DNA of 64,000 nucleotides from Synechococcus sp. CB0101 (GTDB lineage Bacteria > Cyanobacteriota > Cyanobacteriia > PCC-6307 > Cyanobiaceae): the NCBI RefSeq assembly GCF_000179235.2, contig NZ_CP039373.1, positions 2,204,554 through 2,268,553 on the forward strand. The letters are read 5' to 3'. Under the pieces are notes generated by a model, which did no database searches, had not been told where the DNA came from, and saw only the letters and a program-made list of their open reading frames with translations. Below, piece after piece: positions 6,704 through 62,710 of the stretch. Every line of letters starts with the position of its first letter. The stretch's first letter is position 1. The translations under genes and the position numbers were made by a program.

Positions 6704-7924
6704 ATGGGTTCAGCCAAACACCGCCACCAACCAGCCCGTCATCTCCCCGGAAGGGGGCAAACACCGGCCGCCAACACCGATCAAGACCGCGAACTGCTGC
6801 AGTTCAATGTGCGCCTGGCCAAGGCCCGCCAGGCCCAGGCCGACACCAACCGGATTGAGCGCAAGGCCTTCCGCGAGCACGCCCGCATCGAGAACGCCGT
6901 CACCGCCTACACCCGGGAACTCTGTTCCCTATTGGATGAGCGGGGTTTTACCCAGGGTGTGACGCTCTCCCGCATCCCGGAAGGCGGGGATTCCGTGCTG
7001 ATCGTGCAACTGAGCGATCTGCACTTCAACGAGCGGGTTGAACTGCCCTCCAACCGCTACGACTTCACCGTGGCGGCGCAGCGGCTGGCCAAGCTCGCCC
7101 AACGCGTCAAGCAACTGGGCCAGAGCTATGGCGCCCGCAAGGTGGTGGTGGCCTGTCTGGGGGATTTCCTCAACAGCGACCGGCGCCTCGATGAGCTGCT
7201 CTCCAACAGCACCAACCGTTCCAGAGCAACCCTGCTTGCCGTCGACATCCTGCGGGCCTTTCTGCTCGATCTACGCGAGCAGTTCGAGCTCGAGGTCTAT
7301 GGCATCACCGGCAATGAAAGCCGCGTGAACAAAGAGCTCGGCTGGAGCGATGAACTCGCCACCGACAGCTACGACCTGATGATCTACGAGATCCTCAAGC
7401 GCGGCTTTGCCGGCACGGAGGGGATCAACTTCTGCGGCTTCCGCGCCAACGAGCTCCTCTTTGAGGTGATGGGCCGCACCTTCCTCTGCCTGCACGGCCA
7501 CCAGATCGGCGCGAATGTGCAGAAGTCGGTGCAAGAGATCACCGGTAAGTACGCCGCCCAAGGCATCACGGTTGACTACACACTCTTTGGCCACCTGCAC
7601 GCCAGCGCCATCGGCGACTACCACGCCCGCAATGCCTCCCTGGTGGGCAGCAACGCCTACTCAGAAGCCGGTCTGAACTTCTGCAGCAAGGCCGCGCAGA
7701 ACATCCATGTGGTCACACCCGGAACCATCGACGGAATGAAGGTCGATCTCCAGGACGTCACCGGGATCGATCCCTATCCCTTTGCCGCTGAGTGGGAGGC
7801 CTACTGCCCAAGAGCGAGCGCAAACTCCACACCCCTTCTGTCGTCTACCAGGTTGTTGTCTGATGACTGTTGCCACTGCCACCGGTGCCATCGGCACCCG
7901 CGCCACTGTGCAGCTCGCGACTGA
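6704..7924 (+). CDS. Calcineurin-like metallophosphoesterase, copy 1 (C-terminal frameshift)
   Basis: All canonical metallophosphoesterase motifs are present in order: QLSDLHFNE (DxH), CLGDFLNSDR (GDxxx), TGNESRVNKE (GNE), LCLHGHQIG and LFGHLHASA (GHxH). They would bind two metals and act on phosphodiesters or phosphoprotein. A helical, Gln/Arg-rich N-terminus of about 80 residues precedes the domain. The copy at 60237 is 401 residues. Here about 50 bases are deleted before IDGMKVDLQD and one base is missing near 7815, so the last residues read a foreign frame that overlaps the next gene. The catalytic core is intact. Phage and plasmid members of this family are common; the substrate is unknown. 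Confidence 0.85.
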   Translation: MGSAKHRHQPARHLPGRGQTPAANTDQDRELLQFNVRLAKARQAQADTNRIERKAFREHARIENAVTAYTRELCSLLDERGFTQGVTLSRIPEGGDSVLIVQLSDLHFNERVELPSNRYDFTVAAQRLAKLAQRVKQLGQSYGARKVVVACLGDFLNSDRRLDELLSNSTNRSRATLLAVDILRAFLLDLREQFELEVYGITGNESRVNKELGWSDELATDSYDLMIYEILKRGFAGTEGINFCGFRANELLFEVMGRTFLCLHGHQIGANVQKSVQEITGKYAAQGITVDYTLFGHLHASAIGDYHARNASLVGSNAYSEAGLNFCSKAAQNIHVVTPGTIDGMKVDLQDVTGIDPYPFAAEWEAYCPRASANSTPLLSSTRLLSDDCCHCHRCHRHPRHCAARD

Positions 7925-8294
7925 GCTGGCCGCCACCGAGCTCCAAAGCGCCCTGCTCCAGGCCATCACCGGCCTGACCCAACTGGTGAGCCAGCTCAGC
8001 CAGCAGTTCCCCATCGCCCAGCCCGCTGCGACAGCTGAGCCCTGGATGGAGGAACGGCCCGCCCAGGCAAGCCAGCCGACATGCGTGCCCAACCTCTCCC
8101 CCCTCTGGGATGAGCTCTCCGTCGTCGAACTCCGCTCCCTCCTGCGCAGCTACCCGATCGATCGCACCTCACTCCCCGCCGCCTGTCAGGCGACAGCAAA
8201 AACTGGTCCGGCGGCGACACGAAAACTGGTCCACCCTGTGGAGCGAGCCAGGCCTGACGACACGGTGAGCGCAGGGGCGTCATCTCTGGAGCCG

Positions 8295-9608
8295 ATGGCT
8301 GCGGAGATGCCGGTGCAGACCCCTCAGGATGTGGAGGCGATGCAGCGGCTTTCGGCAGCAGGCTGGGGCCGTAGACGGATTGCCCGGGAACTGGGCTGTT
8401 CGCCGGAGACGGTGCGCAAGTACCTACGGCAGGGTGGCTGGCAGCCCTATGGCAAGCCCTGCCGCACCTCGGTTCTCGATGGTCAACGGGAGTGGCTGCG
8501 GCAGCGATTTCTGGCCCACCGCGGCAATGCCGACGTGCTGCGGCAGGAGTTGGCCAGTGAGAAGGGAATCAAGGTGAGCCTGCGCACGGTGGAGCGTGCG
8601 GTTGAGCCATGGCGGCGTGAGCTGCGCAACGCAGCTGTGGCGACGGTGCGGTTTGAGACGCCACCGGGCCGGCAGCTGCAGGCGGACTTTGGCCAGTGCG
8701 TGGTGCGTATTGGCGGCGAGCGGGTGCGGGTGCACCTGGCGGTGCTCACCTTGGGATACTCCAGGCGACTGTTGGTGCGGGCGTTCCGCAGCGAGAAGCA
8801 GGACCACTGGCTCTCAACCCTGGAGGAGGGGTTCCGGCACTGGGGCGGTGTGCCTCAGGAGGTGCTCGTGGATAACGCTCGCGCCCTGGTGAGTCAGCAC
8901 GATCCGGAACGACAGATCCTGGTGTTTGCCCAGCGGCTTGAGCAGTTCGCCAGCTACTGGGGGTTCAAGCCCCGCGCCTGCCGGCCGTACCGGGCCAGGA
9001 CGAAAGGCAAAGACGAACGTGGGGTGGCGTACGTCAAACGCAACGCCATGGCCGGGCGGGAGTTCAGCAGCTGGGCGGAGCTGGAGGCCCATCTGGTGCG
9101 CTGGACCCGTGAGGTCGCTGACCTGAGGGTGCATGGCACCACGGGTGAGGCGCCGCTGGAGCGGTTTATGCGCGCAGAAGCCCAGGCCTTGCAGCCGCTG
9201 GAGGCCAAGCCGTCCTTCTTGGCAGAGCGGGAGCTGGTGCGCGTTGTGCACAGCGACTGCTGCGTGGAAGTGGAAGCGAACTGGTATTCGGCGCCGCAGG
9301 CGCTGATCCGCCAGCGGGTGAGCGTGCTGGTGCGCGATCAACAGGTTCTGATCCGCCATGGCGGCAGGATCGTGGCTGAGCACAGGCGTCAGCGGCCTGG
9401 TAGCCGTAGCCGCCAGGTGATCGACGGCCATTGGGATGGCCTGGTGCCGCAACGGCAGCGGCGCGAGGCGGTGCGTTCGCTGCGGGACACCAGCGAGCGT
9501 TGTGATCAAGAACAGGAGCAAGAGCAGGAGCGGCGCATGGTTCGCAGCTCTGAACTGGCCCGGCCTCTGGCCGTCTATGCCGAGCTGATCGGTGAGGTAG
9601 CGGCATGA
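8295..9608 (+). CDS. istA: IS21 transposase IstA
   Basis: About 437 residues from the ATG at 8295 (a second ATG lies at 8307). An N-terminal HTH (AAGWGRRRIARELGCSPETV) is followed by an RNase-H-like DDE core: LQADFGQCVV, EVLVDNARALV, and a Glu in KGKDERGVAYVKRNAM. A C-terminal Mu-type beta-barrel region follows. The frame is open back into the interrupted host gene, so it can also be read as a fusion; the true start must lie within the element. It cuts and joins element ends together with IstB. Confidence 0.9.
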   Translation: MAAEMPVQTPQDVEAMQRLSAAGWGRRRIARELGCSPETVRKYLRQGGWQPYGKPCRTSVLDGQREWLRQRFLAHRGNADVLRQELASEKGIKVSLRTVERAVEPWRRELRNAAVATVRFETPPGRQLQADFGQCVVRIGGERVRVHLAVLTLGYSRRLLVRAFRSEKQDHWLSTLEEGFRHWGGVPQEVLVDNARALVSQHDPERQILVFAQRLEQFASYWGFKPRACRPYRARTKGKDERGVAYVKRNAMAGREFSSWAELEAHLVRWTREVADLRVHGTTGEAPLERFMRAEAQALQPLEAKPSFLAERELVRVVHSDCCVEVEANWYSAPQALIRQRVSVLVRDQQVLIRHGGRIVAEHRRQRPGSRSRQVIDGHWDGLVPQRQRREAVRSLRDTSERCDQEQEQEQERRMVRSSELARPLAVYAELIGEVAA

Positions 9609-10468
9609 GCACCAACCCGCGCAACCGATCCACACCCATCACGCCACCGGTGCCGACCGAGGAGCTGGAGGCGATGCTTACCCGCCTGCGGCTACCGGCC
9701 ATCCGCGATCGCCTCGATGCGCTCCTGGAGGAGGCGGCAAGGCGGGAGATGAACCTGCGTGAGGCGCTGACCTGGCTCTGCACAGCTGAGGTGGCTCGCA
9801 AGGACCAGCTGCGGATGGAAATGGCGCTGCGGCTGGCGCGCTTTCCGTATGTGCGGACGCTGGAGGCATTTGATTTCGAGGCTCAGCCGTCGATCGATCC
9901 GGCCCAAATCCGCGAGCTGGCCACCTGCCGTTGGGTGGCCAACGGCGACACCTTGCTACTGCTCGGACCGCCGGGTGTGGGTAAGACCCACTTGGCCGTG
10001 GCACTGGGCCGGGAGGCGGTGCGGCTCGGTCACAGCGTCCAGTACGTCGGTGCGATGGAGCTGATCACAGCCCTGGCCAAAGCCCAGGCGCAGCACGCCC
10101 TGGAAGCAAGGCTGACGCAGTACGCCAAAACCCGGCTGCTGATCATCGATGAGCTCGGCTACCTGCCGCTTGAGCCGAACGCGGCCTATCTGTTCTTCCA
10201 GCTGATCTCCCGCTGCTACCAGCGCGGCAGCGTGTTGATCACCTCCAACCGCCCCGTCATGGAGTGGGGCGAGGTGTTTGGTGATCAGGTGGTTGCCACG
10301 GCAATCCTCGATCGGCTGCTGCACCACAGCCACGTGCTGACGATCCGGGGCGACAGCTACCGGCTCAAAGGGAAACGTCGCAGCGGTCTCATCCGCCCGC
10401 AGGCGGGCGGTTCCTCCTCACAGGACAGCGCTGGCCTACAGCCACCGCCGCCCAGTGAGGAGGCCTGA
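9605..10468 (+). CDS. istB: IS21 helper ATPase IstB
   Basis: 287 residues of AAA+ DnaC-like type. The Walker A motif is GPPGVGKTHLAVALG and the Walker B motif LLIIDELGYLPLE, followed by sensor LITSNRP. The start ATG overlaps the istA stop (ATGA). It assists transposition by target selection. The C-terminus is Ser/Gln/Pro-rich. Confidence 0.92.
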   Translation: MSTNPRNRSTPITPPVPTEELEAMLTRLRLPAIRDRLDALLEEAARREMNLREALTWLCTAEVARKDQLRMEMALRLARFPYVRTLEAFDFEAQPSIDPAQIRELATCRWVANGDTLLLLGPPGVGKTHLAVALGREAVRLGHSVQYVGAMELITALAKAQAQHALEARLTQYAKTRLLIIDELGYLPLEPNAAYLFFQLISRCYQRGSVLITSNRPVMEWGEVFGDQVVATAILDRLLHHSHVLTIRGDSYRLKGKRRSGLIRPQAGGSSSQDSAGLQPPPPSEEA

Positions 10469-11296: not shown

Positions 11297-11336
11297 TGTT
11301 GTCTTGATGACTTTTGCAGCTTTAGCACTGTAATCA

Positions 11337-11458
11337 CCAGAAACTCCCCGAAACCTCCCTGGCTCCTCATCTGGTATTGAGCGTTCAACCCTGCGATCGT
11401 GAATACATCGAGAGGAACACGCCTCCGACTTCACCTCACACATCAAGGAGTTTCAATC
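11337..11458 (+). promoter_or_regulatory. Repeated 5' regulatory block A of GG-peptide gene
   Basis: About 120 bp with strong similarity to 11909-12031: shared GCTCCTCATCTGGT, TGCGAT, ACATCG-GAGGAACAC and CCTCCGA. Both blocks end at a GG-leader peptide start codon. Block A ends in AAGGAG, a good ribosome-binding site, 8 bp before ATG. The blocks are more alike than the peptides they precede, which points to common promoter and leader control. Confidence 0.6.
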
Positions 11459-11689
11459 ATGACTAACAACGCAGACCGTGATCTCAACCTTCAAGCTACC
11501 GACCTCCGTCATCAACCAGTAGAGCCTTCGGATGAAGAGTTGGCTGTTGTGGCCGGTGGTTTTGACAAGGATGCATACTGGCAAGGGGTTGTTAGGCTGT
11601 TATCTGATGAAATCGAGCGCGGAAAAGCCACCATGGTCGGTTATGATCGCTTTCGCGGATCGGCAGGCAGTCAAACTGTTTTCTCCTGA
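11459..11689 (+). CDS. Double-glycine leader peptide A
   Basis: 76 residues. An acidic leader ends PSDEELAVVAGG, matching the bacteriocin-type leader rule (E-L-x-x-V/I-x-GG) recognised by C39 peptidase-containing exporters. The predicted mature part starts FDKDAYWQGVVRLLSDEIER and is 42 residues with no Cys. No exporter or modification enzyme lies nearby. Cyanobacterial GG peptides include biofilm factors and microcin-like peptides; which applies here is unknown. It has its own 5' block and terminator. Confidence 0.7.
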   Translation: MTNNADRDLNLQATDLRHQPVEPSDEELAVVAGGFDKDAYWQGVVRLLSDEIERGKATMVGYDRFRGSAGSQTVFS

Positions 11690-11865
11690 GGCTATCTAGC
11701 AGTTCAATTAACAAGCTATGCCATCTATTGATAGTGGGCATTTCGAACGCAAATCCGGAAAGCAGATACAACCGCACATCATTGGTAACGCTGCGGTCAG
11801 GACGAACACTGATGGCCACATAACAAAGGAAAGCCCTCTTACTTGCAGCCTCTAAACGCCTTCGG

Positions 11866-11893
11866 AAGCCCGCCTAACCAGCGGGCTTTTTCA
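11866..11893 (+). terminator. Rho-independent terminator after peptide A
   Basis: Stem AAGCCCGC / GCGGGCTT with loop CTAACCA, followed by TTTTTC. It lies ~175 bp after the peptide A stop. Confidence 0.75.
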
Positions 11894-11908
11894 TGCACGG
11901 CTCTTCAC

Positions 11909-12031
11909 CAGAGACTCTCCGAAAGCTACCCCGCTCCTCATCTGGTCTGGATTTCTCAGTACTGCGATGGTTAACACATCGCGAGGAACACACCTCCGAT
12001 CTCACACCAACCGCTCTACAAGGCCAACACC
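11909..12031 (+). promoter_or_regulatory. Repeated 5' regulatory block B of GG-peptide gene
   Basis: Second copy of the block at 11337-11458, directly in front of peptide B. The 3' end differs, with no strong Shine-Dalgarno sequence (ACAAGGCC at about 10 bp). Confidence 0.6.
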
Positions 12032-12187
12032 ATGAATACCGACATCATTGAAGTCAACACCGAAGAGCTCGAAGCCATTCAGGGTGGAGGCTCAACAATC
12101 CTTGGGAACACGGCACCCGTTGACCCACAGCTTCAACAGTTACACCAAGCGTCGGCAGCAGAGTTCATCCGGAACATTTATCCCTGA
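12032..12187 (+). CDS. Double-glycine leader peptide B
   Basis: 51 residues. The short leader MNTDIIEVNTEELEAIQGG fits the GG rule closely (L at -7, I at -4, GG at -2/-1). The predicted mature peptide is GSTILGNTAPVDPQLQQLHQ plus 12 residues, without Cys. It is paired with peptide A in tandem, each as a separate transcription unit. The mature parts are unrelated, so the two probably share only export and control. Confidence 0.68.
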   Translation: MNTDIIEVNTEELEAIQGGGSTILGNTAPVDPQLQQLHQASAAEFIRNIYP

Positions 12188-12221
12188 GTAACTTGCTGAA
12201 TTCAGATCACCACTCCGTTCT

Positions 12222-12247
12222 TGCCCCGGTTCGCCCGGGGCTTTTTA
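12222..12247 (+). terminator. Rho-independent terminator after peptide B
   Basis: Stem GCCCCGG / CCGGGGC with loop TTCGC, then TTTTTAG. Confidence 0.8.
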
Positions 12248-12268: not shown

Positions 12269-13484
12269 GGAAACTCTGGACAAGCGGTGTTTGAGCGGCG
12301 GCAGCGAGCAGAAAGAGTGGTTTTGGCTGCAAATTGCCTCTGAGGCCATTTTTTGATGACCTTGGCTCACATATCCAGCCACTTTCGGCTGGTTTTGAGG
12401 CTAAATAGAGGTGTGCAGGCACACCAAGTCCCTGTTCACACTGTCGCGAGTAATTGTCGTCGGGCCTGGTACAGATTCGACAGTGCCGCAAGCACGTTGA
12501 TTTTGCAGCGGTTCTTGGCCAAGCCTCGCAGCCGGGTCTTTTGAAAGCCGAACTGCTGCTTGATCACACGGAAGGGATGCTCAACCTTGGAGCGGATGTG
12601 AGCTTTGGCCGTCTCGATCAGATCCTGCACCCTCCCATCCGGGGTGTCAGGAAGAGCCCTGCGCGTGCCGGGCCGCATCGCCACTCTGAACTCCGCTGTC
12701 TTGCCAGCCATTTCTGGTCTCTTGGCGATGCCCTGGTAGCCAGCATCGCCGTACACCACCTCCTCATCTCCATGCAGTAGCTCAGCTGCCGGGGTGAGGT
12801 CGTGCACGTTGGCGGCGGTGACGACAACCGAATGGATCAGGCCTGAGTCCTTGTCAACGCCGGCGTGGACCTTCATGCCGAAGTACCACTGGTTGCCCTT
12901 TTTGGTCTGGTGCATCTCCGGATCCCGCTTCCCATCTTTGTTCTTGGTGGAGCTGGGCGCTGCGATCAAGGTGGCATCGACGATCGTGCCCTGACGCATG
13001 GTTACGCCCCGAGCGGCCAGGAGCGCTTTGACGGTGTCAAAAATCTGCTCACCCAGCCCATGCTTCTCAAGCAGATGGCGGAACGTGAGGATCGTGGTCT
13101 CGTCCGGGATCCGATCGCTGATCAGCTCGATGCCGGCAAAGCGGCGCATGGTGGGCACCTCGATCAAGGCCTCTTCCATGGCCGGATCGCTGAGGGAGTA
13201 CCACTGCTGCAGCAGATGAATGCGCAGCATCGTTGCCAGCGGATAGGGAGGCCTGCCGCCTTTCTTGCTCGCCTTGGGGTAGTGCGGCTCGATCAGATCG
13301 ATGAGTGCCTGCCAAGGCACCACAGCCTCCATCTCGGAGAGAAATTTCTCGCGCTTGGTGCGCTTCTTGGCCGTGGTCAGCTCATAGTCCGTGAAACCGA
13401 GCTGCTTGCCGCCCATCAACCCAGTCCTGGTCTGCGATTACAGGTTCATTTTCGCGCAGACGGGCTGGGTTTTCCAGAATTTCC
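12269..13484 (-). mobile_element. IS5-family insertion sequence, copy 1 (1216 bp)
   Basis: Terminal repeats GGAAACTCTGG and, at the right end (reverse complement), GGAAATTCTGG. A 4-bp target duplication CTAA lies at 12265-12268 and 13485-13488, typical of IS5. The second copy at 58266-59481 has the same length and opposite orientation. It separates the GG-peptide locus from the conserved tail of the module. Confidence 0.92.
12436..13419 (-). CDS. IS5-family transposase, copy 1
   Basis: 327 residues. It has an N-terminal DUF772-like segment (YPKASKKGGRPPYPLATMLR), IPDETTILTFRHLLEKHGLG, and a DDE_Tnp_1 core: IVDATLIAAPSSTKNKDGKR (first D), VVYGDAGYQG (second D) and KVEHPFRVIKQQFGFQKTRL (E and the Y-2-R-3-E type context). 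It appears intact. The encoded protein is identical to that at 58331-59314. Confidence 0.93.
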   Translation of the reverse strand: MMGGKQLGFTDYELTTAKKRTKREKFLSEMEAVVPWQALIDLIEPHYPKASKKGGRPPYPLATMLRIHLLQQWYSLSDPAMEEALIEVPTMRRFAGIELISDRIPDETTILTFRHLLEKHGLGEQIFDTVKALLAARGVTMRQGTIVDATLIAAPSSTKNKDGKRDPEMHQTKKGNQWYFGMKVHAGVDKDSGLIHSVVVTAANVHDLTPAAELLHGDEEVVYGDAGYQGIAKRPEMAGKTAEFRVAMRPGTRRALPDTPDGRVQDLIETAKAHIRSKVEHPFRVIKQQFGFQKTRLRGLAKNRCKINVLAALSNLYQARRQLLATV

Positions 13485-58017: not shown

Positions 58018-58265
58018 ATTAGCGACTCGAGCGCGGTGCCCAGAGCGAGCAGGAATGCAGGGCAACCTCAGCGAGTGTGTATGGACGCTGCCAGATATGA
58101 CAGTGGCAGATCGGACCAGGAAATCCCAGCAGAAAACGGCAACTCGCGCAGGATCCGCTTCCCATACCAGTGACTGTAGTTGGCATTGAGATCAGAACAC
58201 CTGTGTTGAGATTGAGCGTGCGAGCAAGAAGCCAGGATCTTGAACTCTTATGGCGTGATTCCTAA

Positions 58266-59481
58266 GGAAATTCTGGAAAACCCAGCCCGTCTGCGCGAAA
58301 ATGAACCTGTAATCGCAGACCAGGACTGGGTTGATGGGCGGCAAGCAGCTCGGTTTCACGGACTATGAGCTGACCACGGCCAAGAAGCGCACCAAGCGCG
58401 AGAAATTTCTCTCCGAGATGGAGGCTGTGGTGCCTTGGCAGGCACTCATCGATCTGATCGAGCCGCACTACCCCAAGGCGAGCAAGAAAGGCGGCAGGCC
58501 TCCCTATCCGCTGGCAACGATGCTGCGCATTCATCTGCTGCAGCAGTGGTACTCCCTCAGCGATCCGGCCATGGAAGAGGCCTTGATCGAGGTGCCCACC
58601 ATGCGCCGCTTTGCCGGCATCGAGCTGATCAGCGATCGGATCCCGGACGAGACCACGATCCTCACGTTCCGCCATCTGCTTGAGAAGCATGGGCTGGGTG
58701 AGCAGATTTTTGACACCGTCAAAGCGCTCCTGGCCGCTCGGGGCGTAACCATGCGTCAGGGCACGATCGTCGATGCCACCTTGATCGCAGCGCCCAGCTC
58801 CACCAAGAACAAAGATGGGAAGCGGGATCCGGAGATGCACCAGACCAAAAAGGGCAACCAGTGGTACTTCGGCATGAAGGTCCACGCCGGCGTTGACAAG
58901 GACTCAGGCCTGATCCATTCGGTTGTCGTCACCGCCGCCAACGTGCACGACCTCACCCCGGCAGCTGAGCTACTGCATGGAGATGAGGAGGTGGTGTACG
59001 GCGATGCTGGCTACCAGGGCATCGCCAAGAGACCAGAAATGGCTGGCAAGACAGCGGAGTTCAGAGTGGCGATGCGGCCCGGCACGCGCAGGGCTCTTCC
59101 TGACACCCCGGATGGGAGGGTGCAGGATCTGATCGAGACGGCCAAAGCTCACATCCGCTCCAAGGTTGAGCATCCCTTCCGTGTGATCAAGCAGCAGTTC
59201 GGCTTTCAAAAGACCCGGCTGCGAGGCTTGGCCAAGAACCGCTGCAAAATCAACGTGCTTGCGGCACTGTCGAATCTGTACCAGGCCCGACGACAATTAC
59301 TCGCGACAGTGTGAACAGGGACTTGGTGTGCCTGCACACCTCTATTTAGCCTCAAAACCAGCCGAAAGTGGCTGGATATGTGAGCCAAGGTCATCAAAAA
59401 ATGGCCTCAGAGGCAATTTGCAGCCAAAACCACTCTTTCTGCTCGCTGCCGCCGCTCAAACACCGCTTGTCCAGAGTTTCC
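58266..59481 (+). mobile_element. IS5-family insertion sequence, copy 2 (1216 bp)
   Basis: Ends GGAAATTCTGG and GGAAACTCTGG (reverse complement), with CTAA duplicated at 58262-58265 and 59482-59485. Orientation is opposite to the copy at 12269-13484. It splits the conserved non-coding region upstream of the phosphoesterase. Confidence 0.93.
58331..59314 (+). CDS. IS5-family transposase, copy 2
   Basis: 327 residues, identical in sequence to the product of 12436-13419. Intact DDE motifs. Two identical copies indicate recent movement. Confidence 0.93.
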   Translation: MMGGKQLGFTDYELTTAKKRTKREKFLSEMEAVVPWQALIDLIEPHYPKASKKGGRPPYPLATMLRIHLLQQWYSLSDPAMEEALIEVPTMRRFAGIELISDRIPDETTILTFRHLLEKHGLGEQIFDTVKALLAARGVTMRQGTIVDATLIAAPSSTKNKDGKRDPEMHQTKKGNQWYFGMKVHAGVDKDSGLIHSVVVTAANVHDLTPAAELLHGDEEVVYGDAGYQGIAKRPEMAGKTAEFRVAMRPGTRRALPDTPDGRVQDLIETAKAHIRSKVEHPFRVIKQQFGFQKTRLRGLAKNRCKINVLAALSNLYQARRQLLATV

Positions 59482-59485
59482 CTAA

Positions 59486-60236: not shown

Positions 60237-61442
60237 ATGAGTTCAGCCAAACACCGCCACCAACCAGCCCGTCATCTCCCCGGACGGGGGCAAACACCGG
60301 CCGCCAACACCGATCAAGACCGCGAACTGCTGCAGTTCAATGTGCGCCTGGCCAAGGCCCGCCAGGCCCAGGCCGACACCAACCGGATTGAGCGCAAGGC
60401 CTTCCGCGAGCACGCCCGCATCGAGAACGCCGTCACCGCCTACACCCGGGAACTCTGTTCCCTATTGGATGAGCGGGGTTTTACCCAGGGTGTGACGCTC
60501 TCCCGCATCCCGGAAGGCGGGGATTCCGTGCTGATCGTGCAACTGAGCGATCTGCACTTCAACGAGCGGGTTGAACTGCCGTCCAACCGCTACGACTTCA
60601 CCGTGGCGGCGCAGCGGCTGGCCAAGCTCGCCCAGCGGGTCAAGCAACTGGGCCAGAGCTATGGCGCCCGCAAAGTGGTGGTGGCCTGCCTGGGGGATTT
60701 CCTCAACAGCGACCGGCGCCTCGATGAGCTGCTCTCCAACAGCACCAACCGTTCCAGAGCAACCCTGCTTGCCGTCGACATCCTGCGGGCCTTTCTGCTC
60801 GATCTACGCGAGCAGTTCGAGCTCGAGGTCTATGGCATCACCGGCAATGAAAGCCGCGTGAACAAAGAACTCGGCTGGAGCGATGAACTCGCCACCGACA
60901 GCTACGACCTGATGATCTACGAGATCCTCAAGCGCGGCTTTGCTGGCACGGAGGGGATCAACTTCTGCGGCTTCCGCGCCAACGAGCTCCTGTTTGAGGT
61001 GATGGGCCGCACCTTCCTCTGCCTGCACGGCCATCAGATCGGCGCGAATGTGCAGAAGTCGGTGCAAGAGATCACCGGTAAGTACGCCGCTCAAGGCATC
61101 ACGGTGGATTACACGCTCTTTGGCCACCTGCACGCCAGCGCCATAGGCGACTACCACGCCCGCAACGCCTCCCTGGTGGGCAGCAACGCCTACTCAGAAG
61201 CGGGGCTGAACTTCTGCAGCAAGGCGGCTCAGAACATCCACATCGTCACCGCTGCTCCAGCCACAGATCCCAAAGCCAAACAGGCCAAGCCTGCAGCCGC
61301 CACCATCGATGGGATGAAGGTTGATCTGCAGGACGTGACTGGAATCGAGCCCTACGTGTTCAACCGCGAGTGGGAGGCCTACAGCCCCAAAAGCGAAAGC
61401 AAACTCCACACCCCTTCTGTTGTTTATCAGGTTGTTGTCTGA
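60237..61442 (+). CDS. Calcineurin-like metallophosphoesterase, copy 2 (intact)
   Basis: 401 residues with the same five metal motifs as copy 1. It has an Ala/Lys-rich linker (TDPKAKQAKPAAATIDGMKV) missing from copy 1, and ends PSVVYQVVV. Its stop overlaps the start of the next gene (TGATG). The intact operon here is phosphoesterase, 128-aa partner, 157-aa partner. Confidence 0.88.
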   Translation: MSSAKHRHQPARHLPGRGQTPAANTDQDRELLQFNVRLAKARQAQADTNRIERKAFREHARIENAVTAYTRELCSLLDERGFTQGVTLSRIPEGGDSVLIVQLSDLHFNERVELPSNRYDFTVAAQRLAKLAQRVKQLGQSYGARKVVVACLGDFLNSDRRLDELLSNSTNRSRATLLAVDILRAFLLDLREQFELEVYGITGNESRVNKELGWSDELATDSYDLMIYEILKRGFAGTEGINFCGFRANELLFEVMGRTFLCLHGHQIGANVQKSVQEITGKYAAQGITVDYTLFGHLHASAIGDYHARNASLVGSNAYSEAGLNFCSKAAQNIHIVTAAPATDPKAKQAKPAAATIDGMKVDLQDVTGIEPYVFNREWEAYSPKSESKLHTPSVVYQVVV

Positions 61443-61828
61443 TGACTGTTGCCACTGCCACAGGTGCCATCGGCACCCGCGCCACTGCTCAGCTCGCGAC
61501 TGAGCTGGCCACATCCGAGCTCCAAAGCGCCCTGCTCCAGGCCATCACCGGGTTGACGCAGCTGGTGAGTCAGCTCAGCCAGCAGTTCCCCATCGCCCAG
61601 CCCGCTGCGGCAGCTGAGCCCTGGATGGAGGAGCGCCCCACCCAGGCCAGCCAGCCGACATGCGTGCCCAACCTCTCCCCCCTCTGGGATGAGCTCTCCG
61701 TCGTCGAACTCCGCTCCCTCCTGCGCAGCTACCCGATCGATCGCACCTCACTCCCCGCCGCCATCGAACGCCTCCGCCGCAACGAACTCATCGAGGCCCT
61801 CAACCAAATCCAAGCCCTCGGCGCCTAA
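61442..61828 (+). CDS. Phosphoesterase partner gene 1, intact copy
   Basis: 128 residues: MTVATATGAIGTRATAQLAT, LLQAITGLTQLVSQLSQQFP, LWDELSVVELRSLLRSYPID, ERLRRNELIEALNQIQALGA. Helical. The C-terminal part has an LRSLLR--PID--SLP-AIERLRR--LI--L outline like SAP/Rho-N helical modules that bind nucleic acid. Translationally coupled to the phosphoesterase. Confidence 0.7.
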   Translation: MTVATATGAIGTRATAQLATELATSELQSALLQAITGLTQLVSQLSQQFPIAQPAAAAEPWMEERPTQASQPTCVPNLSPLWDELSVVELRSLLRSYPIDRTSLPAAIERLRRNELIEALNQIQALGA

Positions 61829-61889
61829 GGGGCCATAGGCCCCCTTGCGATTCAGATCTCGGGCACTCGCACACACCTCACACACGCCT

Positions 61890-62363
61890 ATGACTGCCAC
61901 CCTCACCGCCGCTCCTCTCTCCCTGGGCGAACCCGCACCGGGAACTCCAGAAGCCCTGCTCCTCCTAGCCAATGCGGGAGTCCTCCCCGCCAGCTCCGGC
62001 GCAGACGACCCGCGCTTCTCCGCTGACTCCATCACCACTTGCGTCACCCGCCTGCTTGAGGTGAAGCAACAGCAAGAACTCCTCAACGCCGAGCAGAAGG
62101 AACTGAACGAGCAGCTGCGCCTAGCCCACCTGCGCGGGGATCTGCTCACCCTGCTGCCGGCGGGCAAGGACGGCAATGGCTACCAGATCACCCCGGACCT
62201 GGTGCTCAACCGCCGCCCCGGCCGCAAGCAGTGGAGCTATTCCATCGACTGCAAGGAGATCGAATGCCAGCTCAAGGCACGCCAGAGTTATGAACAGCAG
62301 AGCGGCCTGGCGAGTTACAGCCTGGGTGCGGCGTTCTGGGAGGTGCGGGCCAGTAAGGGCTGA
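61890..62363 (+). CDS. Phosphoesterase partner gene 2, copy 2
   Basis: 157 residues, about 90% identical to the 10769-11242 product, with changes spread evenly, so both copies are likely under selection. Coiled-coil segment LLEVKQQQELLNAEQKELNE; unknown family. Confidence 0.7.
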   Translation: MTATLTAAPLSLGEPAPGTPEALLLLANAGVLPASSGADDPRFSADSITTCVTRLLEVKQQQELLNAEQKELNEQLRLAHLRGDLLTLLPAGKDGNGYQITPDLVLNRRPGRKQWSYSIDCKEIECQLKARQSYEQQSGLASYSLGAAFWEVRASKG

Positions 62364-62390
62364 CGCTCCTCACGAGAGTTCTCGTCATCA

Positions 62391-62420
62391 AGAGCCCTGG
62401 GTCATCGCCCGGGGCTTTTT
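62391..62420 (+). terminator. Rho-independent terminator of the intact phosphoesterase operon
   Basis: Stem GAGCCCTGGG / CCCGGGGCTT with a TCATCG loop and TTTTT tail. Confidence 0.8.
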
Positions 62421-62445
62421 GGTGTGCAGATATCCGCCGCAATCA

Positions 62446-62690
62446 AAAACCCCCGAGCAGCGCCCGAGGGTCATGAAGCAATCAACATTCCAATGGCTTT
62501 CGTTGGTCTGGATCGAAGCTGCTGGCGTTGGCGCCTGGGGCCGAACGATCCAGGTATGGGTTGTTTGCTCTCCTGGGGCACCTATGGCGGTGCAAACGGA
62601 GTGTCGACCAGTCAGGTGCACAGGTTGAGGACCTTCCTCTTGCCCGGCCGAACGACCTGCCCACGGTTAGGGGATGACTGTTGGAGCAGG
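62446..62690. other. Conserved 250-bp tail of module, copy 2
   Basis: Counterpart of 13490-13740, here directly behind the operon terminator. Starts with CCCCCGAGCAGCGCCCGAGGG. One long frame (MAFVGLDRSCWRWRLGPNDP...) is not maintained in copy 1. Confidence 0.5.
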
Positions 62691-62710
62691 GCCCCCATGT
62701 GCTTCATTGC

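What the first reader, a model, noticed from the sequence alone, without database searches (positions are those of the whole stretch)
11337..12247. Tandem double-glycine peptides, each with a repeated 120-bp control block
Two short ORFs have good GG leaders (EELAVVAGG, EELEAIQGG) but unrelated mature parts. Each has its own terminator, and both follow near-copies of the same ~120-bp 5' block, which is better conserved than the peptides. No exporter is nearby. This looks like a plug-in cassette for secreted peptides (bacteriocin, signal or biofilm factor) served by an exporter in trans. It is absent from copy 2.
Basis: partly seen in the sequence, partly recalled or inferred. Interest (0 to 1): 0.76.

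Follow-up and report, generated by a model that had tools for sequence, protein, structure and literature searches.

The report
Shared promoter drives dispersed secreted-peptide genes
The two small genes belong to a genome-wide set of probable secreted-peptide genes that all start with the same control block, and comparison with related bacteria suggests that one sensor-regulator pair may switch the set on.

Summary
Two GG-leader ORFs (11459-11689, 12032-12187) each follow a copy of one block (11334-11431, 11905-12002; 78% identical) and are absent from copy 2. I count 27 blocks in the host chromosome, four of them weak; in 23 of 27 an ATG opens a strict GG-leader ORF (background 1.5%), and 3 more have degenerate GG sites. 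A folded RNA is not supported. The block reads as a promoter: TCACCAGA-like boxes phased at 11 bp, an AnnnT-type -10 hexamer, a ~55-nt leader. The genome has two C39 exporters, neither near the pair. In a congener, five blocks lie within 20 kb of an orthologous exporter and a PhoB-type two-component system; the host keeps the same two-component system beside its exporter. In 400 family genomes, 12 of 13 with a full-length block carry this regulator clade. In 5 of 14 loci, not the host's, the boxes also lie upstream of the kinase gene. Best reading: a two-component regulon of mostly GG-leader products exported in trans. Host cargo includes two FKBPs and a thioredoxin behind GG leaders. Binding, secretion and function are untested.

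The parts
11334..11431 (+). Control block, copy 1 (98-nt core; the stretch to the ATG ends at 11458)
   Evidence: model R1, built from it and 20 others, scores it 99.6 bits
11334..11370 (+). Operator-like half of copy 1: TCAC (11334), TCCC (11345), TCCC (11356), TCAT (11367), 11-bp spacing
   Evidence: Sequence; lag 11 is the highest mean self-match lag of the host copies; shuffle P 0.0002 for lag 11 of the consensus, 0.11 if any lag may win
11395..11400 (+). -10-like hexamer GATCGT; over the 21 copies its second base A is invariant and its last base T nearly so
   Evidence: A63 invariant, T67 nearly invariant; promoter role inferred. A weak -35-like CTGGTA at 11371-11376 is 18 bp away
11459..11689 (+). 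GG-leader ORF 1, 76 aa; predicted cleavage after residue 34 (AVVAGG|FDKDAYW...)
   Evidence: a closely similar ORF follows the block at 1105785
11868..11891 (+). Terminator-like stem-loop with T run after ORF 1
   Evidence: Read from the sequence; not listed by the scan's rule
11905..12002 (+). Control block, copy 2 of the pair
   Evidence: 78.5 bits
11966..11971 (+). -10-like hexamer GATGGT of the second block
   Evidence: role inferred
12032..12187 (+). GG-leader ORF 2, 51 aa; predicted cleavage after residue 19 (EAIQGG|GSTILG...)
   Evidence: similar cores by eye at 931396, 2580839, 142597
12223..12246 (+). Terminator after ORF 2

Best explanation
The block is an activator-dependent promoter: phased TCACCAGA-like half-sites for a PhoB/OmpR-family response regulator, a weak core promoter and a short leader. 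About 27 copies are spread over the host chromosome. Each drives its own small gene, nearly always a precursor with a double-glycine leader and a variable mature part. The regulator is most likely the response regulator at 2024888-2025586 with its adjacent kinase, encoded next to the HlyD / C39-ABC / ABC exporter operon at 2019-2025 kb. Under an unknown signal the phosphorylated regulator would activate the copies together. The C39 exporter, acting in trans, would cut each precursor after GG and secrete the mature product. Shown by computation: the block family, its near-constant distance to GG ORFs, the 11-bp phasing, the exporters in the genome, and the block/regulator association across genomes. 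Inferred: transcription, regulator binding, export, use of that exporter rather than the one at 799 kb, and biological role.
For: Host: 21 matches by a DNA query that ends 3 bases past the start codon; 5 more with model R1; one weak one at a GG-thioredoxin ORF. 23 of 27 are followed by a strict GG ORF at +113..+140, background 892 of 60000 random positions; without the four weak copies it is 19 of 23. No supported RNA fold. Phasing: lag 11 is the highest mean self-match lag both in the host and in genus g57; TCACC-N6-TCACC occurs 21 times at lag 11 against 0-4 times at each other lag from 8 to 24 in 12 stretches around the regulator genes (block copies included). Among 25 genomes of the genus only G000 and G015 have blocks, and only they have an exporter over 36% identical to the host's (66% in G015) (Fisher P 0.0033). 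In G015 three blocks lie between that exporter and an orthologous kinase/regulator pair and two just beyond it. Regulator clade with 100/100 support, apart from a widespread paralogue. In 400 family genomes, 12 of 13 full-length-block genomes are among its 17 carriers. In genus g57 the table is 10 both, 3 block only, 1 regulator only, 17 neither, P 6e-5. A block lies within 5 kb of the regulator gene in 8 of 13 genomes that have both, 0.7 expected. Phased boxes lie 54-69 bp upstream of the kinase gene in 5 of 14 loci.
Against: No binding or expression data. The host exporter locus has no R1 match below E 0.6, and 9 of 14 kinase genes, the host's and G015's among them, lack clear phased boxes upstream. 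Four regulator carriers (G070, G356, G156, G369) have no R3 match in the stretches fetched around the regulator, two of these being short contigs. G293 (99% complete), G344 and G349 have blocks without the regulator. In the host only the first box is a full TCACCAGA; later boxes are degenerate, TCTGGT at +37 reads as an inverted box, and the shuffle test over all lags gives P 0.11 for the host, 0.04 for g57. Copies and genomes are related, so the probabilities overstate independence. Half of the sampled g57 blocks do not head strict GG ORFs.
Confidence: 0.7

Rival explanations
1. The block is a structured RNA leader (riboswitch or sRNA-bound 5' UTR) that controls translation of GG peptides.
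For: Its near-constant distance to the ATG; inverted arms ACCAGA/TCTGGT and CGATG/CATCG; a small hairpin near the presumed 5' end (GAGG/CCTC in the host, GGGG/CCCC in g57), longer than in shuffles, clearly so in g57.
Against: RNAalifold finds 3 pairs and -1.5 kcal/mol over 21 copies. Of 315 cells in three candidate helices 32 are unpaired, 5 change on one side and 2 on both; the covariation score is reached by 26 of 500 shuffles. No Rfam match at E<=1 lies on the 21 blocks scanned. The 11-bp phasing and a 10-base insertion in one G015 copy suit protein-DNA contacts.
Confidence: 0.07
2. The block spreads as a mobile or duplicating element, and its conservation reflects copying and gene conversion, not regulation.
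For: Paralogous clusters at 931-936 kb and 1105-1108 kb; IS elements flank the window pair; identities up to 98%.
Against: Block-to-ATG distance and core positions persist in another genus with different peptides; no match to the window pair in the phage or plasmid collections; phased boxes also occur without the rest of the block at kinase genes.
Confidence: 0.1
3. The block is a promoter, but its activator is another regulator; the two-component system is associated only through shared ancestry or habitat.
For: G293, G344 and G349 have blocks without this regulator; no clear boxes at the host or G015 kinase gene.
Against: Co-occurrence and physical linkage in more than one genus, and phased boxes at five kinase genes.
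Confidence: 0.2
4. Classical bacteriocin arsenal, each peptide a toxin with a dedicated immunity protein (a claim about function; it can be true together with the promoter reading).
For: GG leaders, small size, diversity of mature parts.
Against: Seven of ten tandem block intervals are 319-571 nt, leaving little room for immunity genes; NCBIfam and Pfam bacteriocin models match only below their cut-offs; cargo includes FKBP and thioredoxin domains.
Confidence: 0.2

Closest known systems
EbfG1-4 / PteB of Synechococcus elongatus PCC 7942 (PMC4997328; passages seen)
   Same: Cyanobacterial small proteins with GG leaders, secretion of which needs a C39 transporter
   Different: EbfG1-4 are neighbouring genes; 'promoter' occurs 0 times in that paper's main text
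Pneumococcal Com and Blp systems (PMC4739721; passages seen)
   Same: GG precursors, processing exporter, and a two-component regulator that recognises a pair of direct repeats
   Different: The blp genes form one locus with a peptide pheromone and immunity genes; ComE/BlpR are, from memory, LytTR-class, not PhoB/OmpR
Prochlorosins and Nif11-leader peptides of picocyanobacteria (PMC10783134; start of abstract and a term search, that returned reference-list passages only)
   Same: One promiscuous enzyme serves the prochlorosin precursors (abstract); two g57 blocks head Nif11-leader precursors over the TIGR03798 cut-off
   Different: The window peptides have short leaders without a Nif11 match; that paper's main text has no 'promoter', 'upstream' or 'two-component'
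Cyanobacterial bacteriocin gene clusters (PMC3140520; passages seen)
   Same: GG precursors with C39 ABC exporters; some groups have an additional ABC transporter
   Different: Precursors were sought within 20 kb of each cluster, so dispersed genes were outside the search
Pho-box type promoters of PhoB/OmpR regulators (recalled)
   Same: Direct repeats phased at 11 bp upstream of a weak core promoter
   Different: Different box sequence; the targets here are secreted products

Membership tests
C39-exported double-glycine precursors | Leader ending in GG with hydrophobic residues at fixed places before it | tested here: met
   Both window ORFs; 23 of 27 block ORFs in the host
C39-exported double-glycine precursors | C39 exporter in the genome | tested here: met
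   Two proteins above the PF03412 cut-off
C39-exported double-glycine precursors | Cleavage after GG and secretion | not testable with these tools
   Needs peptide mass spectrometry
Curated bacteriocin families (NCBIfam/Pfam) | Score over the curated cut-off | tested here: not met
   NF038167 15.9 of 32, TIGR03949 15.2 of 21.5, TIGR01847 14.2 of 15.7, PF10439 15 of 27.1
Nif11-leader / prochlorosin precursors | Nif11-type leader | tested here: not met
   No Nif11 model at E<=1 for either window peptide
NHLP microcin exporter (TIGR03796/03797/03794) | Score over the equivalog cut-off | tested here: not met
   TIGR03796 545 of 853 bits, TIGR03797 477 of 709, TIGR03794 61 of 156; each the best hit of its protein
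PhoB/OmpR-type activated promoter | 11-bp phased direct repeats | tested here: met
   crisp in g57, degenerate in the host (all-lag shuffle P 0.11)
PhoB/OmpR-type activated promoter | Regulator of that family associated with the promoter | tested here: met
   Response_reg + Trans_reg_C protein; association by genome and by distance
PhoB/OmpR-type activated promoter | Binding and activation | not testable with these tools
   Needs gel shift / reporter
Structured cis-regulatory RNA | Conserved fold with compensating changes | tested here: not met
Classical bacteriocin with immunity gene | Dedicated immunity gene beside the precursor | tested here: inconclusive
   Little room in tandem clusters; small ORFs after ORF 1 not assessed

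The most novel reading that the evidence does not exclude
A cyanobacterial peptide-signalling and secretion network: one PhoB-type two-component system, whose kinase gene in some genomes carries the same operator, senses a secreted product of the regulon and turns on dozens of unlinked GG-leader genes at once. The GG leader serves as a general export tag, also for enzymes (thioredoxin, FKBP) that would act outside the cytoplasm on the secreted peptides.
Probability: 0.18. Interest if true: 0.85.

Novelty: new variant of a known kind. Interest (0 to 1): 0.64.

Why it matters
GG-leader peptides are widespread in cyanobacteria, but few have a known function or known control. A single operator that marks the set would list secreted products genome by genome without relying on peptide similarity, names a candidate regulator, and makes a knockout, transcript and secretome test straightforward. 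Enzymes behind GG leaders would widen what C39 exporters are thought to carry.

Tried and rejected
RNA element: not supported by RNAalifold, explicit pair counts and Rfam. Mobile origin: no phage or plasmid match for the window pair. That it is a picocyanobacterium is inferred from a SomB-type porin in the window and the relatives' genome sizes. Prediction that regulator carriers without a detected block would have one near the regulator: failed for G070, G356, G156 and G369 with R3, though G070 has three phased boxes upstream of the kinase gene. Regions around 15 paralogous or more distant regulator genes gave no R3 match (stretches of 1.4-1.8 kb only). Boxes upstream of the host or G015 kinase: none clear. 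Exporter presence alone does not separate block from non-block genomes in g57: 10 of 13 against 11 of 18. Literature: the listings (27 and 64 show 20 of 30 and 20 of 27 papers) showed no title or abstract start on such a promoter family or on FKBP/thioredoxin behind GG leaders; only an open-access library was searched, and four papers were looked into by term search. Neither structure tool was used.

Choices that affect counts. Of the 27 host copies, four are weak: 1427430 (E 0.01), 1426718 (0.10), 1426046 (0.16) genome-wide, and 1420224, E 0.034 in a 54.5-kb scan, which came up after I had noticed the GG-thioredoxin ORF; all four have GG ORFs, and the first bases of the divergent copies were set by hand. 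'Full-length' R2 hit (model 1-3 to at least 79) was defined, where 23 of 400 genomes had any hit, 10 of them partial only; counting any hit, 14 of 17 regulator carriers have one. One search used strict filters and scored 10 candidates per genome. The regulator threshold (E 1e-74) was also chosen; the next hit is at 3e-71, and the tree, which holds 16 of the 17 carriers (G212 left out) and 15 others, separates the two groups; it flags long branches. In one search the GG had to end by residue 45, by residue 75. One search used 28 loci out of well over a hundred matches listed; six gave no ORF by the rule (at least one only because no stop fell within 620 bases) and one lay at a contig end. The 5-kb table was filled in by me from the coordinates, with rounded sizes for fragmented genomes; one of 21 host leaders was not located in the hairpin count of that call and entered as zero.

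Full report
What is there. The window holds two GG-leader ORFs, 11459-11689 and 12032-12187, each headed by a copy of one block, 11334-11431 and 11905-12002. The pair lies between IS21-type istA/istB genes (ORFs within 7782-10468) and an IS5-family transposase gene (12436-13419). A second copy of the surrounding segment at 61035-62694 lacks the pair and both IS insertions.

The block is a genome-wide family. A search of the host chromosome (G000, 2.79 Mb, one contig) with 131 bases that end 3 bases past the start codon gives 21 matches, one of them only 27 nt long. A sequence-only model built from the 21 copies (R1) adds five at 2584409 and 1421-1427 kb, and a scan with filters off adds a weak one at 1420 kb. 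I count 27, four of them weak. In 23 of 27 an ATG at +113 to +140 opens an ORF with a strict GG leader; three more end in QAG, SAA or AGP; one has no such ORF. Random positions in the same stretches give 892 of 60000. Without the weak four it is 19 of 23. Some copies are recent duplicates, so the formal P of 1.5e-38 overstates independence. The mature parts differ widely. Two are nearly complete FKBP domains (PF00254, profile positions 5-94 of 94) and one is a thioredoxin domain with a CEPC motif (PF00085, positions 20-102 of 103, so without the start of the profile). The thioredoxin's weak block (10 bits) begins 128 nt before its ATG.

The block looks like DNA-level control rather than a folded RNA. 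Over 21 copies RNAalifold gives three pairs at -1.5 kcal/mol. Three helices that the eye can draw (ACCAGA/TCTGGT, CGATG/CATCG, GAGG/CCTC) have 89.8% of cells paired, but of the varying cells 32 are unpaired, 5 change on one side and 2 on both. No Rfam match at E<=1 falls on the 21 blocks scanned. Conserved positions fall in two groups. TC-C motifs at +1, +12, +23 and +34 are phased at 11 bp. Lag 11 gives the highest mean self-match in the host and in g57; the host consensus reaches its lag-11 value in 0.0002 of shuffles and that of g57 in 0.0008, but when any lag may win the values are 0.11 and 0.04, and in the host consensus lag 30 (six positions) is slightly higher. The hexamer at +62 (mostly GAnnnT) keeps its A in all 21 copies and its T in nearly all, as expected of a -10 element. 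One G015 copy carries a 10-base insertion between the two groups, about one helical turn. A small hairpin downstream (GAGG/CCTC in the host, GGGG/CCCC in g57) is longer than in shuffled leaders, clearly so in g57, and may matter for the transcript.

Other genomes. Within the genus (25 genomes) only G000 and G015 have blocks by R1. A broader model (R2) has hits in 23 of 400 family genomes, full-length ones in 13. In genus g57 the operator is crisper: in 13 aligned blocks TCACCAG at +1, TCACC at +12, CACCA at +35 and CACCA at +58 are invariant. A g57 model (R3) has matches in 14 of 31 genomes, 13 strong and one marginal, up to 36 per genome. Of 28 g57 blocks sampled, 14 head strict GG ORFs, two of them Nif11-leader precursors (TIGR03798 over its cut-off). 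Four head a conserved small protein with a signal-like hydrophobic N-terminus (...LSLTLGIAAVTHAKTLLIEQ... and relatives; the one scanned has no NCBIfam or Pfam match). The other ten head other ORFs or none by my rule. So the block controls a regulon, not GG peptides alone.

Which exporter and regulator. The host has C39 exporters at 799 kb and 2020 kb. The first stands beside three ORFs with GG motifs of its own and looks like a separate local system. The second belongs to an HlyD / C39-ABC / ABC operon related to, but below the cut-offs of, the NHLP microcin exporter models. It is followed, on the other strand, by a response regulator (PhoB/OmpR type) and a histidine kinase. G015 has the orthologous exporter (66%), regulator (67%) and kinase (48%) in the 20-kb stretch that holds its five blocks: three blocks between exporter and kinase, two beyond the regulator. 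No other of the 25 genus genomes has an exporter match above 36% identity.

Association. In 400 family genomes 17 carry the regulator at E<=1e-74. A tree puts 16 of them, the host and G015 included, in one clade (100/100), apart from a widespread paralogue (long branches flagged). Twelve of 13 full-length-block genomes are carriers (hypergeometric P 3e-18; relatedness ignored); the exception, G344, is 80% complete. Within genus g57 the table is 10 both, 3 block only, 1 regulator only, 17 neither (P 6e-5; 3.5e-4 if the marginal genome counts). A block lies within 5 kb of the regulator gene in 8 of 13 genomes that have both, 0.7 expected. In five of 14 loci, four of g57 and G070, two perfect or nearly perfect phased boxes lie 54-69 bp upstream of the kinase gene, without the rest of the block, as expected for autoregulation; one of these distances rests on a start codon that I set by analogy. 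TCACC-N6-TCACC occurs 21 times at lag 11 in 12 stretches around the regulator genes and 0-4 times at each other lag from 8 to 24 (block copies are among the 21). Against this: the host and G015 kinase genes show no such boxes; G293, G344 and G349 have blocks without the regulator; four carriers have no R3 block in the stretches fetched; and C39 exporters are common in g57 genomes without blocks too (11 of 18, against 10 of 13 with blocks).

Mechanism. I take the block to be a promoter activated by this two-component system, with GG precursors as the main output and the exporter in trans. The signal is unknown. Seven of ten tandem intervals are 319-571 nt, which leaves little room for immunity genes and speaks against a simple toxin/immunity layout. 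A shared C-terminus, (A/S)GxxTVFS or a variant, in otherwise unlike mature parts of the host and G015, with different codons, hints at a common receptor or processing step.

Novelty. GG peptides with C39 exporters in cyanobacteria are known (PMC3140520, PMC4997328; passages), and two-component control of GG peptides through direct repeats is known from pneumococcus (PMC4739721; passages). The searches listed under Tried and rejected showed no report of a dispersed GG regulon with a common operator in cyanobacteria, nor of FKBP or thioredoxin carried behind a GG leader. I rate it a new variant of a known kind.

Noticed in passing
L054:4771-5097 (-) (G000 1419.8-1420.1 kb): GG leader fused to a thioredoxin domain (profile 20-102 of 103) with CEPC motif, behind a weak block at the usual distance.
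   Followed up: partly
G000 934084 and 1106195 (L011:5225-5566, L012:3336-3674): GG leaders fused to FKBP-type prolyl isomerase domains (profile 5-94 of 94), behind strong blocks.
   Followed up: partly
window:11660-11689; G000 1105785, 2147574, 2580839; L056:16805 block (G015): Mature peptides unlike elsewhere share a C-terminus (A/S)GxxTVFS or a variant, with different codons across copies and species.
   Followed up: partly
G000 935681 and 2497075: Block-driven peptides with similar cores (SNT.R.YRRDF) whose leaders end in SAA and AGP instead of GG.
   Followed up: no
L182:8976, L183:8736, L184:9196, L188:6045, L189:8754: In five g57 genomes a block near the regulator gene heads a conserved small protein (about 70-77 aa) with a hydrophobic, signal-like N-terminus; a possible feedback partner of the kinase.
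   Followed up: partly
L185:10067 (-) (G272): A block that matches only in its upstream part lies upstream of an RTX-like repeat protein (GGSGNDRL...) in a genome with no C39 hit.
   Followed up: no
L057:2808-3935: Three ORFs with GG motifs next to the first C39 exporter (799 kb): a separate local system.
   Followed up: no
window:61035-62694: Copy 2 of the segment 7502-13744 without the IS21 genes, the peptide pair and the IS5 element; a 99.8% identical IS5 copy sits at 58263-59484.
   Followed up: yes
window:21412-22641: ORF with a sub-cut-off match to a gene transfer agent endolysin (NF058676, 100 of 315 bits).
   Followed up: no
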